Source of the DNA: Solirubrobacterales bacterium
GTDB lineage: Bacteria; Actinomycetota; Thermoleophilia; Solirubrobacterales; Solirubrobacteraceae
NCBI GenBank assembly: GCA_019239445.1
Contig: JAFAZV010000311.1
Coordinates: forward strand, 1-34,616
Reading direction: 5' to 3'
DNA length: 34,616 nucleotides
This document shows, piece after piece, positions 1 through 32,221 of this stretch. Under the pieces are notes generated by a model. It was not told the origin of the DNA. It worked only from the letters and a program-made list of their open reading frames with translations, and searched no databases. Made by a program: the position numbers and the translations under genes. Positions within the stretch are counted from its first letter, which is position 1, and each line of letters opens with the position of its first letter.

Positions 1-322
1 CTCCTCGCGCGTGATCGCGCTGCTGCACGGCCACACGCACCGCAACCAGATCGTCGCGCGCGCAGGTGCGGGAGGTGGCTACTGGGTGATCGGCACCGCC
101 TCGCTGATCGACTACCCGCAGCAGGTCCGAGCGCTGCGCGTGCTCGCCACCGCCGGCGGCGGGATCGCGATCCAGACCTGGATGCTCGATCACGACCTGC
201 CGGGCCGGCTCGGGGGGATTTCGCGCCAGCTGGCTTACCTCGATGCGCAGGGCGGGCGCCCGAACGAGTTCGCCGGCGGCCGCGGGGATCGCAACGCGAC
301 CCTCTACGTGCCGGCGCGGTAA
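1..322 (+). CDS. Metallophosphoesterase, C-terminal end (partial)
   Basis: The reading frame is open from the left edge (first full codon at 2), so only the last ~106 residues are present. They contain GHTHRN, the C-terminal His-rich metal-binding motif of calcineurin-like metallophosphoesterases, followed by a GTASLIDYPQQ segment that I associate with the larger secreted metallophosphoesterases of actinobacteria; that subfamily placement is from memory. The enzyme would hydrolyse phosphoester bonds using a two-metal centre; the substrate cannot be told. The stop is TAA at 320-322. Signal peptide and the first metal-binding motifs lie outside the window. No downstream gene is close enough to be clearly in the same operon. 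Confidence 0.75.
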   Translation, partial: SSRVIALLHGHTHRNQIVARAGAGGGYWVIGTASLIDYPQQVRALRVLATAGGGIAIQTWMLDHDLPGRLGGISRQLAYLDAQGGRPNEFAGGRGDRNATLYVPAR

Positions 323-5728: not shown

Positions 5729-6554
5729 CCCATGCCTCGGCTCGCGAGAACAACGCGCGCCCCAGCTCCGGCGTGGCCGCCGAGCCGGTGCGCTTGCGCT
5801 GCGAACGCTCGTAGTAGAGCCCGCTCTCGCTCACGAGTTCGGGTGCGGTGGAGCAGTAGATGGTCGTTTTGGCGCCGTCGTTAGTTGAGCGCATGCCCAT
5901 CTTCATCAGCCGGCGGATGGGCCACGGGATCTCGCGCCAGATATCGGACGCGATCACACCGGGATGCAGCGCGTAGCTCGTCACCTGCTGGCCGTCGAGC
6001 CGGCGCGCCAGCTCCTGCGCGTGCAACACGTTGGCCAGCTTCGAGACCGCGTACTCGGGCAGCGCCGTCCGGCTCTTGGTCGGTTGGCGCACTGCCGCGA
6101 AGTCGATCCCTTTGGCGTTGCTGTGGGCGTCGCTGGCGACGTTGACGATGCGCGCCGGCGCGCTGTCGCGCAGTCGATCGAGAAGCAGCTGGGTGAGCAG
6201 GAACGGTCCGACGAAGTTGGTCCCGAAGGCGAGCTCGAAGCCGCTCTCGGTCAGGCCGCGCTGTCCGGCCACGCCGGCGTTGTTGATCAGCACGTGCAGC
6301 GGCCGTCCCGTGGTCAGGAACGCGTCGGCGCAGGCGTGCACCGACGGGAGCGATCCGAGGTCCAGCGGCAGGAAATGCAGCTTGTCGTTGCTCGTCGCCG
6401 CGGTGATCTCCGCCATCGCCGCCTGCGTCTTCGGCGCCGACCGACAGGCCAGAAACAGTTCGGCACCGCGCGCGGCGAGCGCACGCGCCGTGGCCTTGCC
6501 GATGCCGGTATTGGCGCCGGTGATGAGGATCGTCGTCGCGTCGAGATCGCCCAC
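5718..6554 (-). CDS. Short-chain dehydrogenase, retinol-dehydrogenase-like
   Basis: About 278 residues. It has the NAD(P)-binding motif TGANTGIG at the N-terminus, the structural motif NNAG (LHVLINNAGVAGQRG), the catalytic Tyr and Lys in YAVSK, and LHPGVIASDIW after it, as in the RDH11/12-like or light-dependent protochlorophyllide-reductase-like SDRs. It oxidises or reduces an alcohol/carbonyl group; the substrate is unknown. GTG 6554 places the start just before the first beta strand (GDLDATTILITG). An in-frame ATG at 6599 would add 15 residues and neither has a clear ribosome site. The gene overlaps the amidase downstream. Its start faces the LigD polymerase gene across 87 bp. Confidence 0.87.
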   Translation of the reverse strand: MGDLDATTILITGANTGIGKATARALAARGAELFLACRSAPKTQAAMAEITAATSNDKLHFLPLDLGSLPSVHACADAFLTTGRPLHVLINNAGVAGQRGLTESGFELAFGTNFVGPFLLTQLLLDRLRDSAPARIVNVASDAHSNAKGIDFAAVRQPTKSRTALPEYAVSKLANVLHAQELARRLDGQQVTSYALHPGVIASDIWREIPWPIRRLMKMGMRSTNDGAKTTIYCSTAPELVSESGLYYERSQRKRTGSAATPELGRALFSRAEAWVVG

Positions 6555-6641
6555 GGGCGGAGCATACGGGGCGGCGAGCAATCTCTGCGGGTGTCGCATA
6601 CGGCGGCGGGCGATCGCTGCGCGTGCCGCATACTGGTGCGC

Positions 6642-7586
6642 GTGCCCAAATCCAGAGCCGCCGCGCCGCCGGTGGAGCTCGAGATCGACGGACGCGGGGT
6701 GCGGATCTCGAGTCCCGACCGCGTTTACTTCTCCGTCCGCGGGGAGACGAAGCTCGACCTCGCGCGTTATTACCTGAGCGTTGGCGAGGGGATCGTGCGC
6801 GCGCTCCGCGAGCGACCTTGCATGCTGCACCGCTTCCCCGACGGAGTCGACGGGAACAAGGTGCATCAGAAGCGCGTTCCCAGCGGCGCGCCGGAGTGGC
6901 TTCAAACCGTCAGGGTCGATTTTCCCTCAGGCCGTCACGCGGACGAGCTGTGCGTGACCGAGGTAGCGAGCGTGATCTGGGCGGTGCAGATGGCGACGGT
7001 TGAGTTCCATCCTTGGAACTCCCGCCGCGGCGCCGTCGAGCGGCCCGATGAGTGGCGGATCGACCTCGACCCGATGCCGCGCTGCAAGCCCGAGAGCGTG
7101 CGCCACGTCGCGCACGTCGCGCGCGAGGTGCTGGCCGAGCTCGGAGCGACCGGCTGGCCAAAGACTTCGGGCGGCTCGGGGCTGCACGTGTACGTGCGGA
7201 TTGAACCGCGATGGAGCTTTGGCGAGGTGCGGCGCGCGGCGCTCGCGTTCGCGCGCGAGGTCGAGCGGCGCGTTCCACAGCACGCGACGACTACGTGGTG
7301 GCGCAAGGACCGCGAGCCCGACAAGGTGTTCGTCGATTACAACCAGAACGCGCGCGATCACACCATCGCGAGCGCTTATTCAGTCCGCGGCGTCCCCGAA
7401 GGAACGGTCTCGACACCGGTCCGATGGGATGAGATCGACGACGTGAGGCCGGAGGACTGCACGATCGCCACCGTGCCCGCTCGCTTCGCGGCGCTGGGAG
7501 ACCTGCATCGCGGGATCGACGAAGCGGTGTTCTCACTCGAGCCGTTGCTCGCCTGGGCGCAGCGCGAGGAACTGGACGCGGAGTGA
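6642..7586 (+). CDS. Stand-alone LigD polymerase domain (PolD, archaeo-eukaryotic primase fold)
   Basis: A 314-residue protein matching the polymerase module of LigD, the bacterial end-joining protein. Visible landmarks are RVYFSVRGETKLDLARYY, the catalytic pair D141/D143 in RIDLDPMPRC, TSGGSGLHVYV, and FVDYNQNARDHTIASAYSVR near the end. The family adds ribo- or deoxyribonucleotides at broken ends. No ligase or phosphoesterase domain is fused to it. GTG 6642 is chosen as the nearest start upstream of the conserved region; GTG 6636 is possible. No Ku gene is in the window. A stand-alone LigD phosphoesterase domain (15612-16112) and an ATP-dependent ligase (30695-32221) are encoded further along. 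Confidence 0.92.
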   Translation: MPKSRAAAPPVELEIDGRGVRISSPDRVYFSVRGETKLDLARYYLSVGEGIVRALRERPCMLHRFPDGVDGNKVHQKRVPSGAPEWLQTVRVDFPSGRHADELCVTEVASVIWAVQMATVEFHPWNSRRGAVERPDEWRIDLDPMPRCKPESVRHVAHVAREVLAELGATGWPKTSGGSGLHVYVRIEPRWSFGEVRRAALAFAREVERRVPQHATTTWWRKDREPDKVFVDYNQNARDHTIASAYSVRGVPEGTVSTPVRWDEIDDVRPEDCTIATVPARFAALGDLHRGIDEAVFSLEPLLAWAQREELDAE

Positions 7587-18598: not shown

Positions 18599-19768
18599 TC
18601 AATCCGCGGAGTGCCGCCTCGCAGCTCGCGCCACCGCGACATCGTCCCGCGCCGAGTTCCGGCCCGCGCCAACCCACGCGAAGCGGAACGCGAGGCCGGC
18701 GCCGAGGAAGAGCCCACTCGCGAGATGATCGGCACCGCGGGCACCGCGCCGTCCAGCCACCGATAGCCCGAGCCCGGCCAGCACCGCGCCTTTAGCGAGC
18801 GTGAACAGCGTCCGCGACCGTCCGGTCTCGAGCGCCGATCGCAACGGCCCGAGGCGCCGTTCGTTGAGTCGCGAGAGCCCCAACTCGGCGCACATCGCTC
18901 CAATCTGGAGCGCTTCCAAGGCTGAGCGCGCGGGATCATCCGGCGCCGTCCCGCTCGCCGCCAGCGCGAGACGGCAGCCGGCCGCTCCGGTGGCGGTGGC
19001 AGTGGCGACGAAGATCGGCGCCAGCAGCGCTCGGCTCCGCGCCCAGACGGGCACTGCCGTAGAGGCGAGCAGCACGCCGGTGTAGGACCCGAGGTAGGTC
19101 CCGAGCGCGGCCGTCGCGACACCCAGCGACCTGGCCAGCTTGTCTGCACCGACCAACTCGGCCGCCACCGCGCCGCCGGCTGTGGCGCTGAACCCACTCA
19201 GGCACCACGCCCCCATCGACATCGGGGAGCGCGGCTTGAAGATCCGCAGCATGTGCAGGAAGCGCAGAGGGCGCCCGAGGTCGAGGACGAGCAGCGGCGC
19301 ACACGGCGCCACCGCAGCCAGGGCGACTCGGCGCGCGATCGTCGCGGCATCGCGCTCGCCCGTGATGTCGGCGGCCAGGCCCACAAAGGCCGAGCCGGTG
19401 GCGATCCCGCCGAACCAGAAGTAAAGCGGCACCTCCCATGTCCACACGGCCGGGTGGATGAACGGCCCTTGGACGGTGTCCGGCAGCTGCGCTCCGCCGC
19501 GCATCCGCCGCGCCGCGGCTCGAACCTCCCGATCGTCGCCGGCGCGGCGATAGCTCGTGTCTCGCCGGTAGAGGTAGGACCACCGGGCATCGGCCCAATC
19601 GCGCTGGAAGCCCGCGACGGGCGCGTGCTCGACCGCGCGCCGCCAGCGGCCAGGTCCACCTCTCGTACCGAGCGCCGGGGTCATGTCGCGCTCCGGCGGC
19701 GAGCCGCCTTGCGCCTTGAACTCGGCGCGGATCCGCTCCTCAGGACTCGGGCCGCGCTCGTGGCTCAT
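18599..19768 (-). CDS. NrfD-type membrane subunit of the formate dehydrogenase
   Basis: A 389-residue protein whose first ~115 residues are soluble and charged, followed by seven to eight hydrophobic segments from WEVPLYFWFGGIATGSAF to LFLGAGLAFRFAWVGAG. The opening helix and LDLGRPLRFLHMLRIFKPRSPMS are characteristic of NrfD/PsrC proteins, quinone-interacting membrane anchors that lack heme. It would pass electrons between the ferredoxin subunit and the quinone pool. The long N-terminal extension is unusual and may dock to the FdhB subunit. Its start overlaps the fdhB stop (ATGA), so the three subunits are translated together. E. coli formate dehydrogenase-N uses a heme b subunit here instead. 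Confidence 0.85.
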   Translation of the reverse strand: MSHERGPSPEERIRAEFKAQGGSPPERDMTPALGTRGGPGRWRRAVEHAPVAGFQRDWADARWSYLYRRDTSYRRAGDDREVRAAARRMRGGAQLPDTVQGPFIHPAVWTWEVPLYFWFGGIATGSAFVGLAADITGERDAATIARRVALAAVAPCAPLLVLDLGRPLRFLHMLRIFKPRSPMSMGAWCLSGFSATAGGAVAAELVGADKLARSLGVATAALGTYLGSYTGVLLASTAVPVWARSRALLAPIFVATATATGAAGCRLALAASGTAPDDPARSALEALQIGAMCAELGLSRLNERRLGPLRSALETGRSRTLFTLAKGAVLAGLGLSVAGRRGARGADHLASGLFLGAGLAFRFAWVGAGRNSARDDVAVARAARRHSAD

Positions 19769-20871
19769 CGTGGTGCCCTGCGCTTTGAGATCGCGAAGCT
19801 CGCGATCGCGCCGAGGGCAGCCACGCCCGCCGCGGCCAGGCCGGCGGCGGTGGCGAGCGGAGCGTTCGCCTGGATCGGCGAGTCGGCCTGGGCCGGAAGC
19901 CCGAACCGTTCAGGCGGCTCGGTGAGCAGGAAAAACGCGCCGAGGCCGCCCGCCAGCTGCTCCCCCGGCTCGTCGGCGGCGCCGTAGAGGTAGGCGGTGT
20001 CGATGCCTCTCTCGTGCAGCGCGATCACGCGCCCTTTGGCCACCTCCACGAGCTCGTCGTAGGGGCCGAACTGGATCGAGTCGGTCGGGCACGCCTTCGC
20101 GCACGCGGGCTCGAGGCCGTCCTGCAGCCGGTCGTAGCACAGCGTGCACTTGGCCGCGCGGCCGTCGTAGGGATCGCGGTTCGGAACCCCAAACGGACAC
20201 GATGGGACGCAGTAGCCGCAGCCATTACAGATGTCAGGCTGGACGATCACGGTCTGGAACTCGGTACGTATGAGCGCTCCGGTGGGACAAGCGTCGAGAC
20301 AACCGGCGTTGGTGCAGTGCTTGCACACGTCGGACATGAACAGCCACCGGTCCATCGCGGCAACCGCCTCGCCGACGTCGACGTCGCCGGCGCCGACAAT
20401 TGACACAGCGATCTCGCCCCCGGCCGAGGCGCCACCGTCGCCGCCGGCGGACGCCTCGCGCCGCTCGTCCGCCCACTCGACTAGGTCGGGCACCTCTTCC
20501 GGGCGCACGCCACCGCCGGCGCCACCGAGCGCTTCGACGCTCGGCAGCTCGCTTCCGGCCGCGGGCAACGACGGCGCGTGGCCGCCGGCGCCCGCGGCGA
20601 GCGCAGCCTGCGCCTCCGCGCGTGCGGCCGGCGAGGGAGCGAGTCGCTCCACGAAACGGACATGGCGCCACGTTGCGGCGCCAAGCGAGCCGGTGTGGTC
20701 ATAAGAGCCACCCTTGCGGAACTGAAAGCCATCCGCAGGCAGGTCGTTCCATTGCTTGCACGCCACCTCACAGGACTTGCAGCCGATGCACACCGTGGTG
20801 TCGGTGAAGAAGCCCATCCGGACCGCCCCCTCGCGGTGCACCGCGATCTCGCTCGGCGCCGCGCTCGTCAT
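19765..20871 (-). CDS. fdhB: Formate dehydrogenase iron-sulfur subunit (four [4Fe-4S] clusters)
   Basis: A 368-residue ferredoxin-like subunit. Four cysteine groups are visible: CIGCKSCEVACKQW, CKHCTNAGCLDACP, CNGCGYCVPSCPFGVPN and CTLCYDRLQDG...CAKACP, matching the beta subunit of formate dehydrogenase-N (FdnH/FdoH). Between the first and second groups is a ~110-residue Gly/Ala-rich insertion (about 75-150 most repetitive) not seen in E. coli. A C-terminal hydrophobic helix (LAAAGVAALGAIASFAISK) should anchor it in the membrane. ATG 20871 overlaps the fdhA stop by ATGA; a longer start at 20946 would lie inside fdhA and is unlikely. It relays electrons from the selenoprotein to the NrfD subunit. 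Confidence 0.9.
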   Translation of the reverse strand: MTSAAPSEIAVHREGAVRMGFFTDTTVCIGCKSCEVACKQWNDLPADGFQFRKGGSYDHTGSLGAATWRHVRFVERLAPSPAARAEAQAALAAGAGGHAPSLPAAGSELPSVEALGGAGGGVRPEEVPDLVEWADERREASAGGDGGASAGGEIAVSIVGAGDVDVGEAVAAMDRWLFMSDVCKHCTNAGCLDACPTGALIRTEFQTVIVQPDICNGCGYCVPSCPFGVPNRDPYDGRAAKCTLCYDRLQDGLEPACAKACPTDSIQFGPYDELVEVAKGRVIALHERGIDTAYLYGAADEPGEQLAGGLGAFFLLTEPPERFGLPAQADSPIQANAPLATAAGLAAAGVAALGAIASFAISKRRAPR

Positions 20872-23800
20872 CCGCGCCGCCCCGACTCGCGGGCCAACTC
20901 GCGCGCGGCTTCCCACCCGGCCGGGAAATCGGACGCAGCACGCCACTCCTTGTCAGGCGGGATCGGCAGCTCGTACATGCTCGCCGGCGTTTGCGCGCCC
21001 CTCTCCGGAACCTCCGCCTCGTGATCGCCTGCGGGCGCCATCTGGTCGACCTGCTCATCGGCATGAGCCAGCACCTGCGTGGGTTGGTGCTCACGACGCC
21101 CCGCGCGGACCTGGCAGGAGAAGGTCTTGTCCTCGATCGTGACGTTGGGGTCGCCGCTCAGCGCAATGAGGTCGTTCACGCTGTCGCCGATCACGCCCTG
21201 CTCGTTGGTCCGGTAGGTGCCCCAATGCCACGGGATCGCGATCTGATGGACGACCTGCTCTCCCATGCGCAGAGGCTGCAGCCGGCTCGTCACCTTCGCT
21301 CGCGCCTCGATCTCGCCGCGCCGCGTGATCACGGTCAGCCACCCGCCGTCTTCGATTTCGCGTTCGCGCGCCAGCAGCGGACTGAGCTCGACGAACATCG
21401 CGGGCTGAAGCTCGGCCAACCACGGCAGGTTGCGGCTCATCGCTCCCGCCGTGTGGTGCTCGGTCAGGCGGAACGTCGACGCCACTACCGGATAATCGCG
21501 GCTGCGCGCCGGGTTCAGTGGGTTATCGGGGCGGCTCCAGTAGATCCCGCACGGGTTGCCGCCGGTCTTCGGGTAGAGCGCGTTCACGAACGGGGACTCG
21601 AACGGCTCGTAATAGGTGGGTAGAGGCCCATCCAGCGGTCCGGTGTGCGCGAACAGGGCGGCACGGCCGTCGACCATCATGATGAACGGCGCTTGGCCGC
21701 CGAGGGCGTCGACTCCGGTCGCGCCGGGCGGGGGTTCGTAGCTCGGTGGCCGGTCGGCGAGGAAGTCGGGCGCGTCGTATCCCGTCCAGCGGCCGCGCTC
21801 CTCGTCCCACCAGACGTACTTCTTGCGCTCGGACCAGGGCTTGCCGTCGGGATCGGCCGAGGCGCGGTTGTAGAGGATGTGGCGGTTCTCTGGCCACACC
21901 CAACCCCATTCCGGCGACACCCACCCCCCCGGGGCGTCGAGATCCCCGGGATTGCGGCGCCGCGTCTGGTTGACCCCGTCGGCATAGCAGCCGGAGTAGA
22001 TCCAGCAACCGCACGCGGTGCTGCCGTCGGCGCGCAGCTCGGTGTACAGGTTGACGAGCTCGCGGGTACGCAGGTCATAGCCGTTGATCTCCTTGAGCAC
22101 GTCCTCCGCGCTCGGCTCCGCCTCGGGACCGTGCTCGGCGTAGTTCCATGTGAGGTTGCGGATCGGCCAGTCGCGATCGTGTCGCGAGGAGGCGTAGCGG
22201 GCCTTGATGCGCTTGCCCAGGTGGTAGATGAAGTGCAGCTCTGAACGCGCGTCGCCGGGCGGCTCGAGCGCCTTATCGCGCCACTGCACGAGCCGCTGCG
22301 TGTTGGTGAACGATCCTTCCTTCTCCACGTGCGAGGCGGCCGGCATCAGGAAGACTTCGGTGCCGATGTCCTCCGTGCGCAGCTCACCGGAGCGGATCTC
22401 CGGTGAGTCGCGCCAGAAGCTCGCGGTCTCGAGATCGGCGAGGTCGCGCACCACAAGCCATTTCAGCTTGCCCAGCGCCCGCCGCTGAAGGCCGGCGTGC
22501 TGGGAGCCGACAGCCGGGTTCTGGCCCATGATGAACATGCCATCTAGGCCGCCGTCGATCGCGCGCAGCACGGTCGGAAAGTGCGAGTGGTTGCCGGAGA
22601 TCTTCGGCAGATAGCCAAAGCCGTAGTCGTTCTCCGCCCGGGCGCCCTCGCCGAACCAGGCTTTGAGCAGCGAGACGATGTACTTGTCGTAGTTGGCCCA
22701 CCAGCCGCGCTCGCTCGAGCCGACCTCGACGAAGTCGGCGAGAGTCTGGTGGTCCTCCCTCGCCCGCGGCATCCGTAGATAGCCGGGCAGAAGGTCGTAC
22801 AAGGTAGGAATGTCGCTCGAGCCCTGGATCGAGGCGTGCCCGCGCATCGCCATCACGCCGCCGCCGGGACGCCCGACGTTGCCGAGCAGCAGCTGGACGA
22901 TCGCGCCCGCGCGGATCGTCTGCACGCCCGTGCTGTGCTGCGTCCAGCCGACCGCGTAGGCGAGCATCGTCGTGCGCTCGCGCCCGGAGTTCTCGATCAG
23001 CGCGTCGGCCACGCGCAGGAAATCCTCGGCCGAGCAGCCGCAGATGCGGCTCACCATCTCGGGCGTGTAGCGCTCGTAGTGGCGCTTGATGATCTGAAAC
23101 ACGCAGCGCGGATGCTCGAGTGTCGGATCCGTCGGCACTTGATCGAGCCCGGTGCCGGCTTCCGTTTGCTCTTCGAACGCCTGCGTTGCCTGCTCGCGCT
23201 CGCCAGGTCCCGACGGCGCGTCGCTGCTCTCCGGCAGCCAAGTCGTCCGGTCGTAGGTGCCGCTGGCGGGGTCGTAGCCGGAGAACAGCCCGTCCAGCTC
23301 CTCCGGCCCCTGATAGCCCTCGTTGATTATCACCGGCGCGTTCGTGTAGTTCACGACGTAGTCGCGGAAGAACGACCCGGTCTCGATGATGCGCCGGATC
23401 AGCCCGCCGAGGAAGGCGATATCGCTGCCGGCGCGGATCTGCACGTAGATGTCGGCGACCGCGCTGGTGCGCGAGTAGTGCGGGTCGACGTGGATGATCT
23501 TCGCCCCCCGCTCACGAGCTTTCATCATCCAGCGCGAGCCGACCGGGTGCGCCTCAACGAGCGAGTTGCCCTGGATCCAGACGCAATCCGATTGCTGGAA
23601 ATCTTGCTGGAAGTTCGTCGCTCCCCCGCGGCCGAATGAGGCGCCCAGACCGGGCACCGTCGAGGAGTGTCATATCCGTGCCTGATTCTCGATCTGCACC
23701 GCGCCAAGCGCGGTGAACAGCTTCTTGATCAGGTAGTTCTCCTCGTTGTCGAGTGTGGCCCCGCCCAGGTGTGCGAAGGCGAGTGTTCGATCGACTCTCC

Positions 23801-24263
23801 ACCCCTCGGAGTTGGCCTCCTGCCAGTGCTCCTCGCGGGCGGCGATGACCCGCTCAGCGATCATGTCCATCGCGCGCTCGAGCTCGAGCTCCTGCCATTC
23901 GGTGGCGTGCGGCGCCCGGTAGAGAACCTTTGTCAACCGTGCCGGCTGCTGGATCAGCTGGCGCGAAGCCTGGCCTTTGGGGCACAGCGTGCCCTGGTTG
24001 ATCGGCGAGCGCGGATTGCCCTCGATGTCCACGAGCTCGCCGCCGCGGGTGTAGACCAGCTGCCCGCAGCCTACGGCGCAGTAGGGACAGACCGATTCGG
24101 TGGCGCGAAGGCCGGCGATGCGCGCTCCGGCACGCTTCGTGTTGCGCGACACCGCGGCTGGCCCGAGACCCCAGTCGGCGGTGCGGCCGATCAGCGGCAG
24201 CTGACGGATGCGCTCGAACGCGCGCGGTCGCGACGAATCCCTCCCTGCCTGCTTGCCCGTCAT
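20868..24263 (-). CDS. fdhA: Formate dehydrogenase alpha subunit, selenocysteine-containing
   Basis: Read through the in-frame TGA at 23670-23672, this is one 1131-residue molybdopterin oxidoreductase; residue 198 is selenocysteine. E. coli FdnG has it at 196. The N-terminal [4Fe-4S] motif is CPYCAVGCG with the fourth Cys in GTLCPKG. The active site reads ENQARI-Sec-HSSTVPGLG, where formate dehydrogenases carry Sec or Cys next to the catalytic His. Later landmarks include GWTQHSTGVQTIRAGAIVQ, MGQNPAVGSQH and the C-terminal dinucleotide-binding domain (STFRLTEHHTAGAMSRNLPW). It oxidises formate to CO2, or the reverse, at a Mo/W bis-MGD centre. I see no Tat signal peptide, so the active site probably faces the cytoplasm, unlike FdnG. 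It starts six bases after the flavoenzyme stop. Conventional gene calling would report two genes (20868-23657 and 23670-24263). Confidence 0.95.
23640..23672 (-). promoter_or_regulatory. Selenocysteine codon and bacterial SECIS hairpin in fdhA
   Basis: TGA occupies 23672-23670 on the minus strand. After 11 bases a perfect 7-bp stem (GGTGCCC pairing with GGGCGCC, one G-U) closes the five-base loop GGTCT at 23658-23640. E. coli fdhF has the same 11-base distance and the same GGTCT loop, where SelB binds the loop G and U. The hairpin lies inside coding sequence and is translated as TVPGLGA. Confidence 0.9.
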
Positions 24264-24269
24264 CTCATT

Positions 24270-25316
24270 TCATTTGGCTGAGGGCGCCGCACTTTGGCGC
24301 GCTTCGCCGGCAGCATACGCCGAGGCCGCTGAGACTGGCGACGCTTCGACGTGGTCGCGGACGAGACGCCCGAGCAGCGGCGCGAACTTGAACAAGCTGG
24401 GTCCGGTGAGCCCGATGACTCCATCGTGTTCCCGCAGATCCCAGCCGTCGTGGGCGGGACCGCTCGGGTTGAGCGGAAACTCGCAGGCGATGACGCGTTC
24501 TGGTACCGGCGCGAGCCCCGGCAGCAGACGGACGACTATCTCCACCGTGCGCCGATACGCCTCGCGGATGGCATCGGCCTCGGAGATTGCCACCGAGCCG
24601 GCGTCGCTCAGGCCGACCGAGTAGTGATCGCCACCATCCAGCACGGCATAGAAAGGCTCCGACATGGCCTCGTCGCGCTGGATCCAGCAGGGCGCGCTGG
24701 CGTCGAGCGGCTCGCGGAGCGCGAATGAGAATCGCACTGAGCGCAGCCGCTCAGGCTCGGGCAGACCGAGCAGCGCGTAGGTACCGGGACCCGCGCACAC
24801 CACCACCCGGTCGGCGTCGATCCGCTCGCCGCTGGCGAGGCTCACCCCCTCCGCATCGACGGCGACCACCTCGTCCAGCACGAGCTCCAAGTCGCGCTGC
24901 AGGAACCGCACCGTCGCTTCCGCGCGGATCGCGGCGCCGGTGGCTTCGAGCCATCCGCCTCCGGGGAGATCAGCGAGCGGATGGCGTGCTCCGTCCACCG
25001 GCTCGAGGCCCCCATAGCGCCGCAGGTGGACCTCGCGATCGGCCATATCCCCGGTCAGCAGGAGACCGACCGCCTGTAACAGCGGCTCGCCGGCCAGCTC
25101 CTCCCACACGCGCCAGAGCTCGAGCGCGCTCGCCGCCGCGTCCGTGAGCTCTCGATCGGCATGGGCGAGGCGGAAGATCCGCGAGAGGCCGGCCGACTGG
25201 CGCGCGCCGGGGACATCCGCGCTCAGCACCGTCACCTGATGGCCCGCCCGCGACAGCTCGAAGGCGGCGGCTAGTCCGACCACCCCGGCACCCACGACGA
25301 CTACATCGCTGCTCAT
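24270..25316 (-). CDS. FAD-dependent amine oxidase/dehydrogenase (sarcosine oxidase-like)
   Basis: A 348-residue DAO-superfamily flavoenzyme. It has the dinucleotide-binding VVVVGAGVVGLAAAFELSRAG at the N-terminus, RIDADRVVVCAGPGTYALLG, and a C-terminal GVIGLTGPSLFKFAPLLG that matches the FAD-contact segment of monomeric sarcosine / N-methyltryptophan oxidases. A Cys in VIACEFPLNP is near where those enzymes attach FAD covalently; I cannot confirm the alignment. Such enzymes remove an N-methyl group as formaldehyde. The formate dehydrogenase gene starts six bases after its stop, so it is the first gene of that operon, hinting that the FDH uses formate derived from formaldehyde. Glycine- or proline-type oxidases are alternatives. 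Confidence 0.82.
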   Translation of the reverse strand: MSSDVVVVGAGVVGLAAAFELSRAGHQVTVLSADVPGARQSAGLSRIFRLAHADRELTDAAASALELWRVWEELAGEPLLQAVGLLLTGDMADREVHLRRYGGLEPVDGARHPLADLPGGGWLEATGAAIRAEATVRFLQRDLELVLDEVVAVDAEGVSLASGERIDADRVVVCAGPGTYALLGLPEPERLRSVRFSFALREPLDASAPCWIQRDEAMSEPFYAVLDGGDHYSVGLSDAGSVAISEADAIREAYRRTVEIVVRLLPGLAPVPERVIACEFPLNPSGPAHDGWDLREHDGVIGLTGPSLFKFAPLLGRLVRDHVEASPVSAASAYAAGEARQSAAPSAK

Positions 25317-25585
25317 CGCCCTCGAACCCTAGTGAGTTGGATCCGTGTCACCGCGCACGCCCGGGTCAAAAACGTCGTACTCGTCCGTGTTCCCCTGCCG
25401 AGGGCACGAATTCGTCGGCATAGATCAACAAGGTTGTGTTCGCGGGCGGCCGCACACCGAGTGCGACGTTTTCATCCATCCGTTGTGCGGCCAGAGGACC
25501 CTCAAAACGCTGGGGCGGGTTTCGCCGGGGCTGGCGCCGGATAGGTAGCTCCCGGGATCTGAGCTGCGGAGGAGGAGATAGAAAG
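25317..25585. other. Divergent control region between the FDH operon and the GH65 gene
   Basis: This 269-bp gap must hold promoters for both directions. The clearest structure is a perfect 9-bp inverted repeat, GGCCGCACA (25448-25456) and TGTGCGGCC (25484-25492), separated by 27 bases. It could be a regulator site or a hairpin in the GH65 leader. The GH65 ribosome site GGAGGAGA lies at 25569-25576. I see no convincing -10/-35 pair and no riboswitch. Confidence 0.4.
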
Positions 25586-28306
25586 ATGCGTGCGCGGGTG
25601 CGTTTGGCTGGCGGCGTCGTGATGTCGGTGGCGGTCTTGCTCCTCACGGCAGCCGGGACGGCCGGCGCCGCCGGCGGGTCGTTCTTGCTCACGGCGCGCG
25701 AGGATGGCAACAGCTACGCCCCCACCTTCACCGGTAACGGCCTCCTCGGCGTGCGGATCCCGGCGACGGGCCAGGGGTATGCCGGCGGGACCGTTCCGGC
25801 CCAATCCGAGCTGGCGGGCTTCTACGCCCGGCCTTCGAAGGGCAAGGCTGCGCAGCTCGTCCAGCAGCGGGCGAACATCCCGACCTGGTCGACGCTGACC
25901 TTCTCGGACGGCGGAACCGCCTTCTCGACTCGCGCCGGCACCACCTCCGGATGGCGCCAATCGATCGACCTGCACACCGGAATTGTCTCCACGACCGCGC
26001 GCTGGAGGGCTCCGAACGGCCACGTCACCGATATGAGCTATCGGGTGTTCACCGACCGCGCGCGCGAGCACGTCGCCGTCGTGCAGCTCGTGCTCGTCCC
26101 GCACTGGTCAGGGACGGCCACCGCGAGCGACATCATCGACGGCACGGCCGACACGCAGGCCTCGAAGGCCGCTCCCGTCCTGACCTCGCAAGTGGCGAAA
26201 GGGTGGAACGTCGGCGCGAGGTCGGACTGGGTCACGATCGCGGCCTTTGGTACCGGCATCCAAACCACGCTGGCCGATCAGCTGGTCGCGAGCCCGAACG
26301 TGGCCGCCATCAGTGCGCCGATCGATGAGGGGGTGGCGCAGAGTGTCGGCCAGCGGCTGAGCTTCCCCGTCACCGCCGGGCAGTCCTACGTGCTGACCAA
26401 GTACGTCGGCGTCGACTACTCGCTCGACAGCCCCGCCAGCGCTGCCGCCGCCCAGCTCGAAGCCGCAGGCGCGGCGTCCGCGGGCTCTGCCGCCCTGGAA
26501 GCCGAGAACAACCGAGCGTGGGCGCAGCTCTGGGAAGGCCGGATCGACGTCTTCGGCAACCCGACGCTCGCCACCAACGTCAACGCCAGCGAGTTCTATC
26601 TGTGGTCGAGCACGCGCGAAGATCTGGACTGGAGCGTGTCTCCCGCAGGCATCTCCTCCAACGGCTACGACGGCCACATCTTCTGGGACGCTGAGACGTG
26701 GATGTACCCGTCGCTGCTCCTCCAGCACCCGGAGCTGGCGGCCGGGATGAACGCCTATCGCTTCGATCGCCTGGCTGCGGCCGAGCAGCACGCGCTCGCG
26801 ACGGGATACGCGGGCGCTCGGTTCCCGTGGGAGAGCGCGTTCGACGGAACCGAACAGATTCCGCCCCCGGTGTCCGTGAACAGCGAGGGCCTGTATGAGC
26901 AGCACATCACCGCTGACGTGGCGCTGGCGCAATGGCAGTACTACCTCGCTACGGGCGACCGGCAATGGCTGGCCTTGCGCGGCTGGCCGGTGATCGCCGG
27001 CGCCGCCGCGTTCTGGGCCTCGCGCGCGCGCCCAGGCTCGCACGGCAGCTATCACATCGCCCACGTCACGGGCCCTGACGAGGAGAACCCGAACGTGAAC
27101 GACGAGGTGTTCACGAACGTCGGCGCCAGGGTGACGCTGCAGAACGCGATCTCGGCCGCGCGCGCGTTGGGGAAGGCATCTCCGCCGGCTTGGTCCCGGA
27201 TCGCCGCCGGGCTGGTCGTGCCGATCATCCGGGGGCGACATCCGGAGTACGCCAGCTACCGCTCGCAGCTCGTCAAGCAGGCCGACGTGACGCTACTGCA
27301 GTACCCGTGGTCGTTCCCGATGCCGGGACGGATCGCCCAGAGCGACCTCGACTTCTATGTCCCGCGCACCGACCCCACCGGCCCGTCGATGAGCGACGCC
27401 GTGAACTCGATCGACAGCCTGCGGCTCGGATCGCCGGGCTGTGCGGGCTACGTCTACACCGTGCGCAGCTACGAGCCCTTCATTCGCGACGTGTTTCACC
27501 AGTTCTCCGAGACGAGGACCGGCGGCGCGTTCACGTTCATGACCGGGATCGGCGGATTCCTGCAGGAGTTCCTCTACGGTTATTCGGGGCTGCGCTGGCA
27601 GGGCGGCGCCGCGCTGCCGATCGCTCCGACCTTGACCAGCCAGCTCTCGGGCCTGGTGCTTCGCAACCTGTCCTGGCGAGGCCGGCGCTTCGACATCTCG
27701 ATCGGGCGCACGAGCACGACCGTGACGCTGACCAGCGGCGGGTCCCTGCCGTTGCGGACACCGTCCGGGGTGCGGGTGGTCACACTCGGCCGGCCGCTGC
27801 GGATCGCCACGGCGCGTCCCGATCTTACGGCGAGCTCAGACGCCATCCGCTGCCAGAACGTCCGCGCGAGCAGCGCCCAGATCGGAGCCCCCGCGCTCGC
27901 GGCCGTCGACGGCAGCTCGGCCACCGATTGGCAGCCGGCGAAGCTTCCCGCGACCCTGACCGTCGCCACCCACGGCGGCCAGGGGCGCATCCGCCACGCC
28001 ACCGTGCGCTGGGGCCAGATGTGGCCGGCGCAGCCCAAGCCGAACGTCCACCCGGCTCCGGGGCCGGTCAAGACGCTGCGCGCCTCGAGCTACGCCCTGC
28101 AGGTGTCGAACAGCGGCCGGACGTGGAAGACCGTGGTCCAGGTCCGGGACACCGGCAGCGGTACAACGGACAGCCTCACCTTCGCGCCCGTCAGCGCCCG
28201 CTACGTCCGCTTGCGGCTCCTCGCGGCGTCGCTGGGGACGGTCGCCGGCTCGAAGCCCAAGCAGCCGCTCGAGCCGGAGGTGAACGAGCTGACTGTGACG
28301 CGTTGA
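25586..28306 (+). CDS. Secreted GH65-family glycosidase with C-terminal F5/8 type C-like domain
   Basis: A 906-residue exported enzyme. The signal peptide is residues 1-30 (VVMSVAVLLLTAAGTAGAAG). The (alpha/alpha)6 catalytic region has HIFWDAETWMYPSLLL, WESAFDGTEQIPPP, and VTGPDEENPNVNDEVFTN, whose first Glu (E499) is at the general-acid position of GH65 (kojibiose, trehalose and maltose phosphorylases; the animal glucosylgalactosyl-hydroxylysine glucosidase). A signal peptide and lack of a clear phosphate-binding loop favour a hydrolase acting outside the cell on alpha-glucosides. The last ~140 residues (ALAAVDGSSATDWQP to ARYVRLRLL) resemble a discoidin (F5/8 C) carbohydrate-binding domain. 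ATG 25586 has a strong GGAGGAGA ribosome site. The final codons lie in a tandem duplication. Confidence 0.88.
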   Translation: MRARVRLAGGVVMSVAVLLLTAAGTAGAAGGSFLLTAREDGNSYAPTFTGNGLLGVRIPATGQGYAGGTVPAQSELAGFYARPSKGKAAQLVQQRANIPTWSTLTFSDGGTAFSTRAGTTSGWRQSIDLHTGIVSTTARWRAPNGHVTDMSYRVFTDRAREHVAVVQLVLVPHWSGTATASDIIDGTADTQASKAAPVLTSQVAKGWNVGARSDWVTIAAFGTGIQTTLADQLVASPNVAAISAPIDEGVAQSVGQRLSFPVTAGQSYVLTKYVGVDYSLDSPASAAAAQLEAAGAASAGSAALEAENNRAWAQLWEGRIDVFGNPTLATNVNASEFYLWSSTREDLDWSVSPAGISSNGYDGHIFWDAETWMYPSLLLQHPELAAGMNAYRFDRLAAAEQHALATGYAGARFPWESAFDGTEQIPPPVSVNSEGLYEQHITADVALAQWQYYLATGDRQWLALRGWPVIAGAAAFWASRARPGSHGSYHIAHVTGPDEENPNVNDEVFTNVGARVTLQNAISAARALGKASPPAWSRIAAGLVVPIIRGRHPEYASYRSQLVKQADVTLLQYPWSFPMPGRIAQSDLDFYVPRTDPTGPSMSDAVNSIDSLRLGSPGCAGYVYTVRSYEPFIRDVFHQFSETRTGGAFTFMTGIGGFLQEFLYGYSGLRWQGGAALPIAPTLTSQLSGLVLRNLSWRGRRFDISIGRTSTTVTLTSGGSLPLRTPSGVRVVTLGRPLRIATARPDLTASSDAIRCQNVRASSAQIGAPALAAVDGSSATDWQPAKLPATLTVATHGGQGRIRHATVRWGQMWPAQPKPNVHPAPGPVKTLRASSYALQVSNSGRTWKTVVQVRDTGSGTTDSLTFAPVSARYVRLRLLAASLGTVAGSKPKQPLEPEVNELTVTR

Positions 28307-30388: not shown

Positions 30389-30694
30389 GAGACTCTCCCT
30401 CCTCGAACTGGACCTACGGATTGGCGCGATCCTACGTCGCGCGCCGGATCGGGAGGATCACACCCGCCGACCACGGGCCGCCAAAAATGCCCACACTTGC
30501 AGCCCAGCCACGCAGTGGTCGCGATCGTGGTGCTCTGGGCACAGGTTTCGCGACCACCTGCCCACCCGCGTCGAAGTGGTCGACTTCGTGGTGGTTCGCG
30601 CGCTCCTCGGCTCCGCCGCCTCCGCCACCGCCCTCGGTTCCGCCGCCTCCGCCACCGCCCTCGGGTCCGCAGCGTTGCTGCTTCTCTACGTGCC
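30389..30694. other. 306-bp gap between divergent genes, with a possible HNH nuclease remnant
   Basis: No intact gene is supportable here. Minus-strand reading of about 30600-30485 gives ANHHEVDHFDAGGQVV in one frame and, after a frame change, NLCPEHHDRDH in another; joined, these look like the DH...GG...NL.LC..HH core of an HNH endonuclease, as in the common DUF222/HNH actinobacterial proteins. No start, N-terminal domain or intact frame remains, so this would be a decayed fragment. GC-rich sequence yields chance matches, so confidence is low. The promoters for the AOC-like gene and the DNA ligase must lie in this region. Confidence 0.3.
30606..30670. repeat. 27-bp tandem repeat, 2.4 copies
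   Basis: Units start at 30606 and 30633 with a partial third at 30660. The two full copies differ at one base (CTCGGC versus CTCGGT). The array is rich in CCGCC and lies just before the DNA ligase start. It is too short and lacks spacers to be a CRISPR array. Confidence 0.85.
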
Positions 30695-32221
30695 TTGACT
30701 TCCCTTGGCGATGTCGTTGACGCCTCGCGGCAGGTAGCCGCGACCCGCTCGCGCTCGCAGAAGGTCGCGATTCTCGCCGGACTTTTGCGCAAGCTCGAAC
30801 CCAGCGAGGTTCCGATCGCGGTTGCCTTCCTGGCCGGCGTACCGCGCCAGGGTCGCATCGGCATCGGCTACTCAACGCTCCGGGCGATCGCGCCGGCGCG
30901 GGCGCCGGCCGGCGGAGTCGCGCAGGCCGCGCTCGAGGTGATCGAGGTCGACCGCGCGATCGACGAGATCGTCGCGCTGGCGGGAAGCGGATCCGCCCGC
31001 CGGCGCAGCCAGCGGCTCGAGGCGCTGCTGGCGCGGGCGACCCCGGAAGAGGTCGAGTTCGTCGGGCGGCTGCTCACCGGCGAGCTGAGGCAGGGCGCGC
31101 TTGCGGGCATCATGGCCGACGCGATCGCCAGCGCTGCAGAGGTTCCGAGCGAGCTCGTGCGCCGGGCGCTGATGCTTTCAGGAAATCTTTCGCGGACCGC
31201 AGACATCGCGCTAGCGGCCGGCGGAGAGGGCCTGCGAGGCGTCGGCTTCGAGGTCTTCCGGCCGATCCTGCCGATGCTCGCGTCGACCGCGAACAACGTC
31301 GCCGAGGCGGTTGAGGGGTTCGCCTGCGCATCGGTGGAATGGAAGCTCGACGGGATCCGGGTGCAGATCCATCGCCGGGCGCGCGAGGTCCGGATCTACA
31401 CGCGCAACCTCAACGACATCACCGCGGCCCTGCCCGGAGTCGTCCAGGCGGTGCTCGCCCTGCCACTGGAGCAGGCGGTGCTCGACGGCGAGGCGCTGTG
31501 GATGGCCGAGGGCGGTCCCGCGTCTTTTCAGGAAACCGTCTCTCGGATCGACCGTGATGCCCCGCCGGAGGGGATCGTGACGTTCCTGTTCGACCTCTTG
31601 CACCTCGAAGGTGAGGACCTGCTCGACACCCCGCTCCGCGTCCGCGCCGAGAGGCTCCAAGCCGTCGCGCCCGGCCTGACGATCCCCCGCGTGCTGACCT
31701 CGGATCCGGAGACCGCTCGGGGCGTTCTCGAGGAGTCGCTCCAGGCCGGCCACGAGGGAGTCGTGGTCAAGGACGCGGCATCGCTCTACGCCGCTGGGCG
31801 CCGAGGCGGCGCTTGGCGCAAGGTCAAGCCGGTGCAGACCTACGACCTGGTCGTCCTCGGCGCGGAATGGGGGCACGGCCGCCGCCAAGGCTGGCTCTCG
31901 AATCTTCATCTCGGGGCTCGTGATCCCGGCACCGGCGGCTTCGCGATGGTCGGCAAGTGCTTCAAGGGGCTGACCGATGAGCTGCTCGAGTGGCAAACGC
32001 GCGAGCTGCTCGCGCGCGAGACCGAGCGCCGCGGGATCGCCGTGCTGGTGCGTCCGGAGCTGGTGGTCGAGATCGCGATCGATGGCGTCCAGGTCTCGAC
32101 CCGCTATCCGGGCGGGATCGCGCTGCGGTTCGCGCGCGTCAAGCGCTACCGGCCCGACAAGCGCGCCGATGAGGCCGACAGCATTGAGGAGCTTCGCCGG
32201 CTGCTCCCGCACCGCGTGTGA
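30695..32221 (+). CDS. ligB: ATP-dependent DNA ligase (LigB type)
   Basis: A 508-residue ligase, close to the 507 residues of mycobacterial LigB. An N-terminal DNA-binding domain (about 1-195) precedes the adenylation domain, where K217 in VEWKLDGIRVQIH is the residue adenylated by ATP. Further motifs are VLDGEALW (motif III), FLFDLLHL (IIIa), EGVVVKDAASLY (IV) and WRKVKP (V); the OB-fold domain ends RFARVKRYRPDK. It seals nicks in duplex DNA with ATP. It is not fused to LigD modules. I take TTG 30695 as start because it fits the family's N-terminus (LGDVVDASRQVAATRSRSQK); no ribosome site is evident. Replicative ligation is normally by the NAD-dependent LigA, so this is a repair ligase. Confidence 0.92.
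   Translation: MTSLGDVVDASRQVAATRSRSQKVAILAGLLRKLEPSEVPIAVAFLAGVPRQGRIGIGYSTLRAIAPARAPAGGVAQAALEVIEVDRAIDEIVALAGSGSARRRSQRLEALLARATPEEVEFVGRLLTGELRQGALAGIMADAIASAAEVPSELVRRALMLSGNLSRTADIALAAGGEGLRGVGFEVFRPILPMLASTANNVAEAVEGFACASVEWKLDGIRVQIHRRAREVRIYTRNLNDITAALPGVVQAVLALPLEQAVLDGEALWMAEGGPASFQETVSRIDRDAPPEGIVTFLFDLLHLEGEDLLDTPLRVRAERLQAVAPGLTIPRVLTSDPETARGVLEESLQAGHEGVVVKDAASLYAAGRRGGAWRKVKPVQTYDLVVLGAEWGHGRRQGWLSNLHLGARDPGTGGFAMVGKCFKGLTDELLEWQTRELLARETERRGIAVLVRPELVVEIAIDGVQVSTRYPGGIALRFARVKRYRPDKRADEADSIEELRRLLPHRV

What the first reader, a model, noticed from the sequence alone, without database searches (positions are those of the whole stretch)
20868..24263. Selenocysteine formate dehydrogenase hidden as two genes
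Seen: two minus-strand frames are separated by one in-frame TGA, with no frame change, and together give a full alpha subunit with Sec at residue 198. A 7-bp stem with a GGTCT loop starts 11 bases after the TGA. Known: E. coli fdhF has the same loop and distance, and Sec/Cys is adjacent to the catalytic His in this family. Inference: the organism carries SelA, SelB, SelD and tRNA-Sec elsewhere; none is in the window. Selenoproteins are rare in high-GC actinobacteria, so the gene is easily missed.
Basis: partly seen in the sequence, partly recalled or inferred. Interest (0 to 1): 0.85.

Follow-up and report, generated by a model that had tools for sequence, protein, structure and literature searches.

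The report
Selenocysteine formate dehydrogenase in soil actinobacterium
The two adjacent reading frames are one intact gene for a selenium-containing formate-oxidising enzyme whose internal UGA 'stop' is read as selenocysteine; this is real, but it is a fairly ordinary member of an enzyme family already known in actinobacteria.

Summary
Confirmed. Minus-strand frames 24263-23670 and 23657-20868 are one 1131-residue formate dehydrogenase alpha subunit with a single in-frame TGA (23670-23672) at the catalytic selenocysteine position (U198-H199). A 7-bp hairpin with loop GGTCT starts 11 nt after the TGA and is the only such site in the window. Across 71 distinct TGA relatives the hairpin is 96% paired with compensatory changes, including wobble-to-wobble pairs. 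The same draft genome (Thermoleophilia-type MAG) encodes SelA-SelB, SelD, FdhD and two further TGA-containing formate dehydrogenases. Its tRNA-Sec was not found; in six same-genus relatives tRNA-Sec lies beside a gene that is also absent from this assembly, so a gap is likely. A same-genus single-contig relative with no detected tRNA-Sec, SelA or SelB carries Cys at the site.

Membrane-bound formate oxidation through a 4Fe-4S subunit and an NrfD-like protein is inferred. Novelty: new member of a known kind.

The parts
20868..24263 (-). fdhA: formate dehydrogenase alpha subunit, 1131 residues, Sec at 198, terminal TGA at 20868-20870
   Evidence: Read-through translation; NF041513 and TIGR01553 over cut-off; Pfam Molybdopterin, Molybdop_Fe4S4, Molydop_binding
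23670..23672 (-). in-frame TGA codon read as selenocysteine
   Evidence: TGA at the homologous codon in relatives 66-85% identical
23640..23658 (-). SECIS hairpin: 7-bp stem, loop GGTCT (23647-23651), 11 nt after the TGA
   Evidence: covariation in 71 relatives; Rfam SECIS_3 at 23617-23675, 40.1 bits, below its gathering score
19765..20871 (-). fdhB: 4Fe-4S electron-transfer subunit (listed ORF starts at 20946; an ATG at 20871 overlaps the fdhA stop as ATGA; conserved MGFFTDT begins at 20817); one C-terminal hydrophobic segment
   Evidence: Fer4_11; TIGR01582 174 bits, under its cut-off 334.7
18599..19768 (-). NrfD-like membrane subunit; start overlaps the fdhB stop as ATGA
   Evidence: Pfam NrfD 83.7 bits

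Best explanation
The locus is a three-gene operon (fdhA-fdhB-NrfD-like) for a membrane-associated, probably cytoplasm-facing molybdenum or tungsten formate dehydrogenase. UGA codon 198 is read as selenocysteine because SelB carrying Sec-tRNA-Sec binds the hairpin 11 nt downstream. Sec198 ligates the metal of the bis-pterin cofactor next to His199 and takes part in formate oxidation to CO2. Electrons pass through the 4Fe-4S clusters of alpha and beta to the NrfD-like subunit and probably to quinone. Shown here: gene structure, hairpin with covariation, family membership, selA, selB and selD in the same assembly. Inferred: actual Sec insertion, presence of tRNA-Sec, metal, orientation, quinone coupling and direction of catalysis.
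For: Single in-frame TGA at the Sec site of an otherwise intact gene. SECIS 96.0% paired in 71 distinct UGA relatives (shuffles 86.9%, slid versions at most 63.4%), 41 double-sided changes against 9.1 in shuffles, covariation score 0.311 against 0.138; three of the pairs join third codon positions. SelA, SelB, SelD and FdhD in the assembly. Two more UGA formate dehydrogenases with the same hairpin register in the same assembly. Across 61 related genomes the UGA gene co-occurs with tRNA-Sec (p 7e-5) and SelB (p 2e-5). Cys replaces Sec in G015, where no strong tRNA-Sec, SelA or SelB was found. A. chiangmaiensis, with the same kinds of enzymes, shows selenium-dependent formate removal (PMC7176365).
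Against: tRNA-Sec not found in this assembly. G034, 97% complete, has the UGA gene but no detected tRNA-Sec, SelA or SelB. The co-occurrence p-values ignore shared ancestry and assembly gaps. The assembly is 6.9% contaminated, so the parts may not all come from one strain. No protein-level evidence.
Confidence: 0.95

Rival explanations
1. The TGA is a sequencing or assembly error, or a true nonsense mutation in a decaying gene.
For: The window is one contig of a draft metagenome assembly with 6.9% contamination.
Against: TGA is at the same codon in relatives down to about 52-58% identity; the downstream half keeps the coding GC pattern; the hairpin covaries; two paralogues in the assembly have the same feature.
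Confidence: 0.02
2. Two separate proteins are made: a 197-residue N-terminal part, and a C-terminal part started at the GTG at 23657 after the TGA.
For: A GTG start lies 12 nt after the TGA and gives a 929-residue frame.
Against: The split falls at the catalytic residue and inside the Sec motif; homologues with Cys are single chains; the hairpin is conserved at synonymous positions.
Confidence: 0.01
3. UGA is no longer decoded in this lineage because tRNA-Sec has been lost.
For: No tRNA-Sec match above tRNA-Ser level; G034 has the UGA gene with no tRNA-Sec, SelA or SelB detected.
Against: selA, selB and selD are intact and three UGA formate dehydrogenases remain open. The gene that flanks tRNA-Sec in six same-genus relatives also has no match in this assembly, which points to a gap.
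Confidence: 0.02

Closest known systems
Sec formate dehydrogenases FDH1, FDH2 and FDH3 of Actinomycetospora chiangmaiensis DSM 45062 (PMC7176365)
   Same: Three Sec-FDHs in one actinobacterium: two described as membrane-bound with alpha subunits of 1078 and 1089 aa and one cytoplasmic NAD-dependent of 640 aa; SelA, SelB, SelD and FdhD present
   Different: Other class of Actinomycetota; selenium dependence and protein detection shown there, only sequence evidence here; I did not align those sequences directly
NCBIfam NF041513 formate_DH_Act and TIGR01553 formate-DH-alph
   Same: Window protein passes both cut-offs over nearly full length
   Different: The window clade has a C-terminal extension of about 60 residues past the end of NF041513 and forms its own Thermoleophilia branch
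Periplasmic Sec-FDH of Desulfovibrio (1H0H, 6SDR) and E. coli Fdh-N (1KQF)
   Same: Closest solved structures by sequence; Sec next to His
   Different: No Tat motif found in the N-termini of the window's family; NrfD-like third subunit here, cytochrome b in E. coli Fdh-N (own knowledge)
E. coli fdhF SECIS
   Same: GGTCT loop at the same +19 to +23 register after the Sec codon
   Different: E. coli does not form the regular seven-pair stem
UAG-Sec formate dehydrogenases of Geodermatophilaceae (PMC5330540)
   Same: Same gene family, same site, same hairpin
   Different: Sec codon is TAG there, TGA here

Membership tests
Formate dehydrogenase alpha subunit, Fdh-N/NF041513 type | Full-length match over curated cut-off | tested here: met
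   NF041513 1602 of 1400 bits; TIGR01553 934 of 814 bits
Formate dehydrogenase alpha subunit, Fdh-N/NF041513 type | N-terminal 4Fe-4S motif, molybdopterin domains, Sec/Cys followed by His | tested here: met
Selenoprotein decoded by bacterial SECIS | In-frame UGA at a site that is Cys or Sec in homologues | tested here: met
   Cys in L071 and L075; X (Sec) in 1H0H
Selenoprotein decoded by bacterial SECIS | Hairpin just downstream with conserved loop, kept by compensatory change | tested here: met
Selenoprotein decoded by bacterial SECIS | SelA, SelB and SelD in the genome | tested here: met
Selenoprotein decoded by bacterial SECIS | tRNA-Sec in the genome | tested here: inconclusive
   Not found in an incomplete assembly; strong in 29 of 61 genomes of the related set; flanking gene also missing here
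Selenoprotein decoded by bacterial SECIS | Selenium incorporated at residue 198 | not testable with these tools
   Needs 75Se labelling or peptide mass spectrometry
Rfam RF01989 SECIS_3 | Score over the gathering threshold (63 bits) | tested here: not met
   40.1 bits, E 4e-8; the score does not separate a UGA paralogue (15.3) from a Cys control (15.6), so it is not relied on
Membrane-bound respiratory formate dehydrogenase | Adjacent 4Fe-4S and membrane subunits | tested here: met
   Fer4_11 and NrfD domains, ATGA overlaps; order repeated in relatives' loci
Membrane-bound respiratory formate dehydrogenase | Formate oxidation coupled to quinone reduction | not testable with these tools
   Inference from gene order and families

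The most novel reading that the evidence does not exclude
This lineage reads UGA as Sec with a divergent tRNA-Sec that both the Rfam model and a model built from relatives miss; G034, with the UGA gene but no detected tRNA-Sec, SelA or SelB, would be the extreme case.
Probability: 0.03. Interest if true: 0.65.

Novelty: new member of a known kind. Interest (0 to 1): 0.2.

Why it matters
It shows that a Thermoleophilia-type soil actinobacterium encodes three separate selenocysteine formate dehydrogenases, a gene type that table-11 gene calling splits in two. It extends the published actinobacterial set to this lineage and provides a large SECIS covariation set. It does not change what is known about selenocysteine decoding.

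Tried and rejected
Second in-frame TGA reported in ten relatives' genes: in the loci checked it is the ordinary terminal stop, read through by the aligner. ARAGORN tRNA-SeC on C195 206-288(-): rejected, it lies antisense inside selA and lacks the conserved tRNA-Sec arms of the relatives. tRNA-Sec next to selD, where several relatives have it: none after selD here. Link with the FAD oxidoreductase gene just upstream (24270-25316): no match in the other loci fetched, so not treated as part of the system. Rfam at the gathering threshold found nothing in the window. Rfam SECIS_3 as a discriminating test: dropped after the Cys control scored like a UGA paralogue.

Full report
OBSERVATION. The window is contig C63 (34,616 bases) of a 4.32-Mb, 462-contig assembly, 92.5% complete and 6.9% contaminated; its closest named relatives are Solirubrobacterales and Thermoleophilaceae metagenome genomes. 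The two minus-strand frames 23670-24263 and 20868-23657 are in register and separated only by TGA 23670-23672. Read through, they give 1131 residues with Sec at 198 and a terminal TGA. Both halves share the coding GC signature. The protein matches NF041513 'formate_DH_Act' (1602 bits, cut-off 1400) and TIGR01553 (934 bits, cut-off 814), with Fe4S4, molybdopterin and dinucleotide-binding domains. It aligns to the Sec residue of D. gigas formate dehydrogenase 1H0H in the context QARI-U-HS.

SECIS. Eleven bases after the TGA lies GGTGCCC-GGTCT-GGGCGCC. Of 69,142 positions in the window it is the only one with seven pairs and an RGTYT loop at that spacing. E. coli fdhF has GGTCT at the same register. 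On 71 distinct UGA relatives the stem is 96.0% paired (shuffles 86.9%, slid versions at most 63.4%), with 41 double-sided changes (shuffles 9.1) and a covariation score of 0.311 (shuffles 0.138, slid at most 0.105). Three of the seven pairs join third codon positions, so protein constraint does not explain their covariation; pair 15-27 occurs as CG, UA, GC, UG and AU. The outermost pair is weaker (16 of 71 unpaired). The loop is RGTYT in all 87 distinct TGA or TAG forms, although GGT is only 6 of 109 glycine codons in this gene. In the two Cys relatives several stem positions are unpaired. Rfam SECIS_3 matches the site (40.1 bits, under its gathering score), but a UGA paralogue scores 15.3 and a Cys control 15.6, so I do not lean on it.

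MACHINERY. SelA and SelB are adjacent on C195, SelD is on C200 and FdhD on C324. A second selA 5' end at the edge of C110 is 95% identical, which suggests strain mixing. Two more UGA formate dehydrogenases are in the assembly: C329 (55% identical to the window protein) and C266 (TIGR01591 type, beside NuoE/NuoF-like frames, probably NAD-dependent). Both have seven-pair hairpins with GGTCT at the same register. tRNA-Sec was not found: the best Rfam match is a tRNA-Ser, and a model built from 12 relatives gives only tRNA-Ser-level scores. In six same-genus relatives tRNA-Sec lies near an OB-fold protein gene, and that gene has no match in this assembly, so the region is probably missing. In G025 and G034 the gene is present without a tRNA-Sec behind it, so the synteny is not absolute.

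DISTRIBUTION. Among 61 related genomes the UGA gene co-occurs with tRNA-Sec (p 7e-5) and SelB (p 2e-5); tRNA-Sec and SelB co-occur at p 6e-10. These tests ignore shared ancestry and assembly incompleteness. G015 (single contig) has Cys and no strong tRNA-Sec, SelA or SelB match. In a quick tree of 100 alpha subunits the window protein sits in a clade of 14 Thermoleophilia-type rows, and its C329 paralogue in another clade; all sampled rows are UGA except one clade of 20 with UAG, of which 19 are Geodermatophilaceae and one is labelled Bacillus, and one Cys row. The UAG case is published (PMC5330540). The search that supplied the named relatives was seeded with the window protein and kept the best 80 of 133 loci, so it is not a census.

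MECHANISM. fdhA, fdhB and the NrfD-like gene overlap by ATGA at both junctions, which suggests translational coupling. No Tat motif was found in the N-termini of the family, beta has one C-terminal hydrophobic segment, and the third subunit is NrfD-type. The same gene order recurs in most relatives' loci. The simplest reading is a cytoplasm-facing, membrane-anchored enzyme that passes electrons from formate to quinone; this part is inference.

COMPARISON. Actinomycetospora chiangmaiensis has three Sec-FDHs of the same kinds, detected SelA, SelB and SelD proteins, and selenium-dependent formate removal (PMC7176365). Zhang et al. 2006 name Actinobacteria among three selenoprotein-rich phyla (PMC1794560), and Peng et al. 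2016 list Sec-trait transfers among actinobacteria (PMC5029168). I found no paper in the held library on Sec-FDHs of Thermoleophilia or Solirubrobacter, which is weak evidence because most subscription papers are absent. The finding is correct and well supported, but it is a new member of a known kind, and the rarity claim that raised its interest is not supported.

Noticed in passing
G034 (L059, named record L084: CADCVR010000024.1): A 97%-complete relative carries the UGA gene with its hairpin but no tRNA-Sec, SelA or SelB was detected: missing contigs, or a recent loss of decoding.
   Followed up: partly
L095, L102-L105, L107, L111, L115, L118, L120, L122-L124, L127-L129, L132, L134, L135, L137: Twenty formate dehydrogenase genes, nearly all Geodermatophilaceae, have TAG at the Sec site with the same hairpin; one (L128) is in an unverified record labelled Bacillus sp. 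AZ43 that falls inside the Blastococcus group.
   Followed up: partly
L021 (C266) 580-814: About 119-nt direct repeat, two copies 72% alike, with inverted-repeat arms of 17-46 nt, some 1.5 kb past the end of the NAD-type formate dehydrogenase operon.
   Followed up: no
L019 (C195) 206-288 (-): ARAGORN calls a tRNA-SeC antisense inside selA; it does not resemble the relatives' tRNA-Sec and could mislead annotation.
   Followed up: yes
window 5964-7586 (+) and 30497-32221 (+): A LigD primase-polymerase gene and an ATP-dependent DNA ligase gene lie about 23 kb apart, which suggests a split bacterial end-joining system.
   Followed up: no
L019 1-320 and L020 4369-4671: Two selA 5' regions, 95% identical in protein, on different contigs: strain heterogeneity in the assembly.
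   Followed up: partly
window 25436-28306 (+): A glycoside hydrolase family 65 protein with an F5/8 type C domain, next to the formate dehydrogenase locus on the other strand.
   Followed up: no
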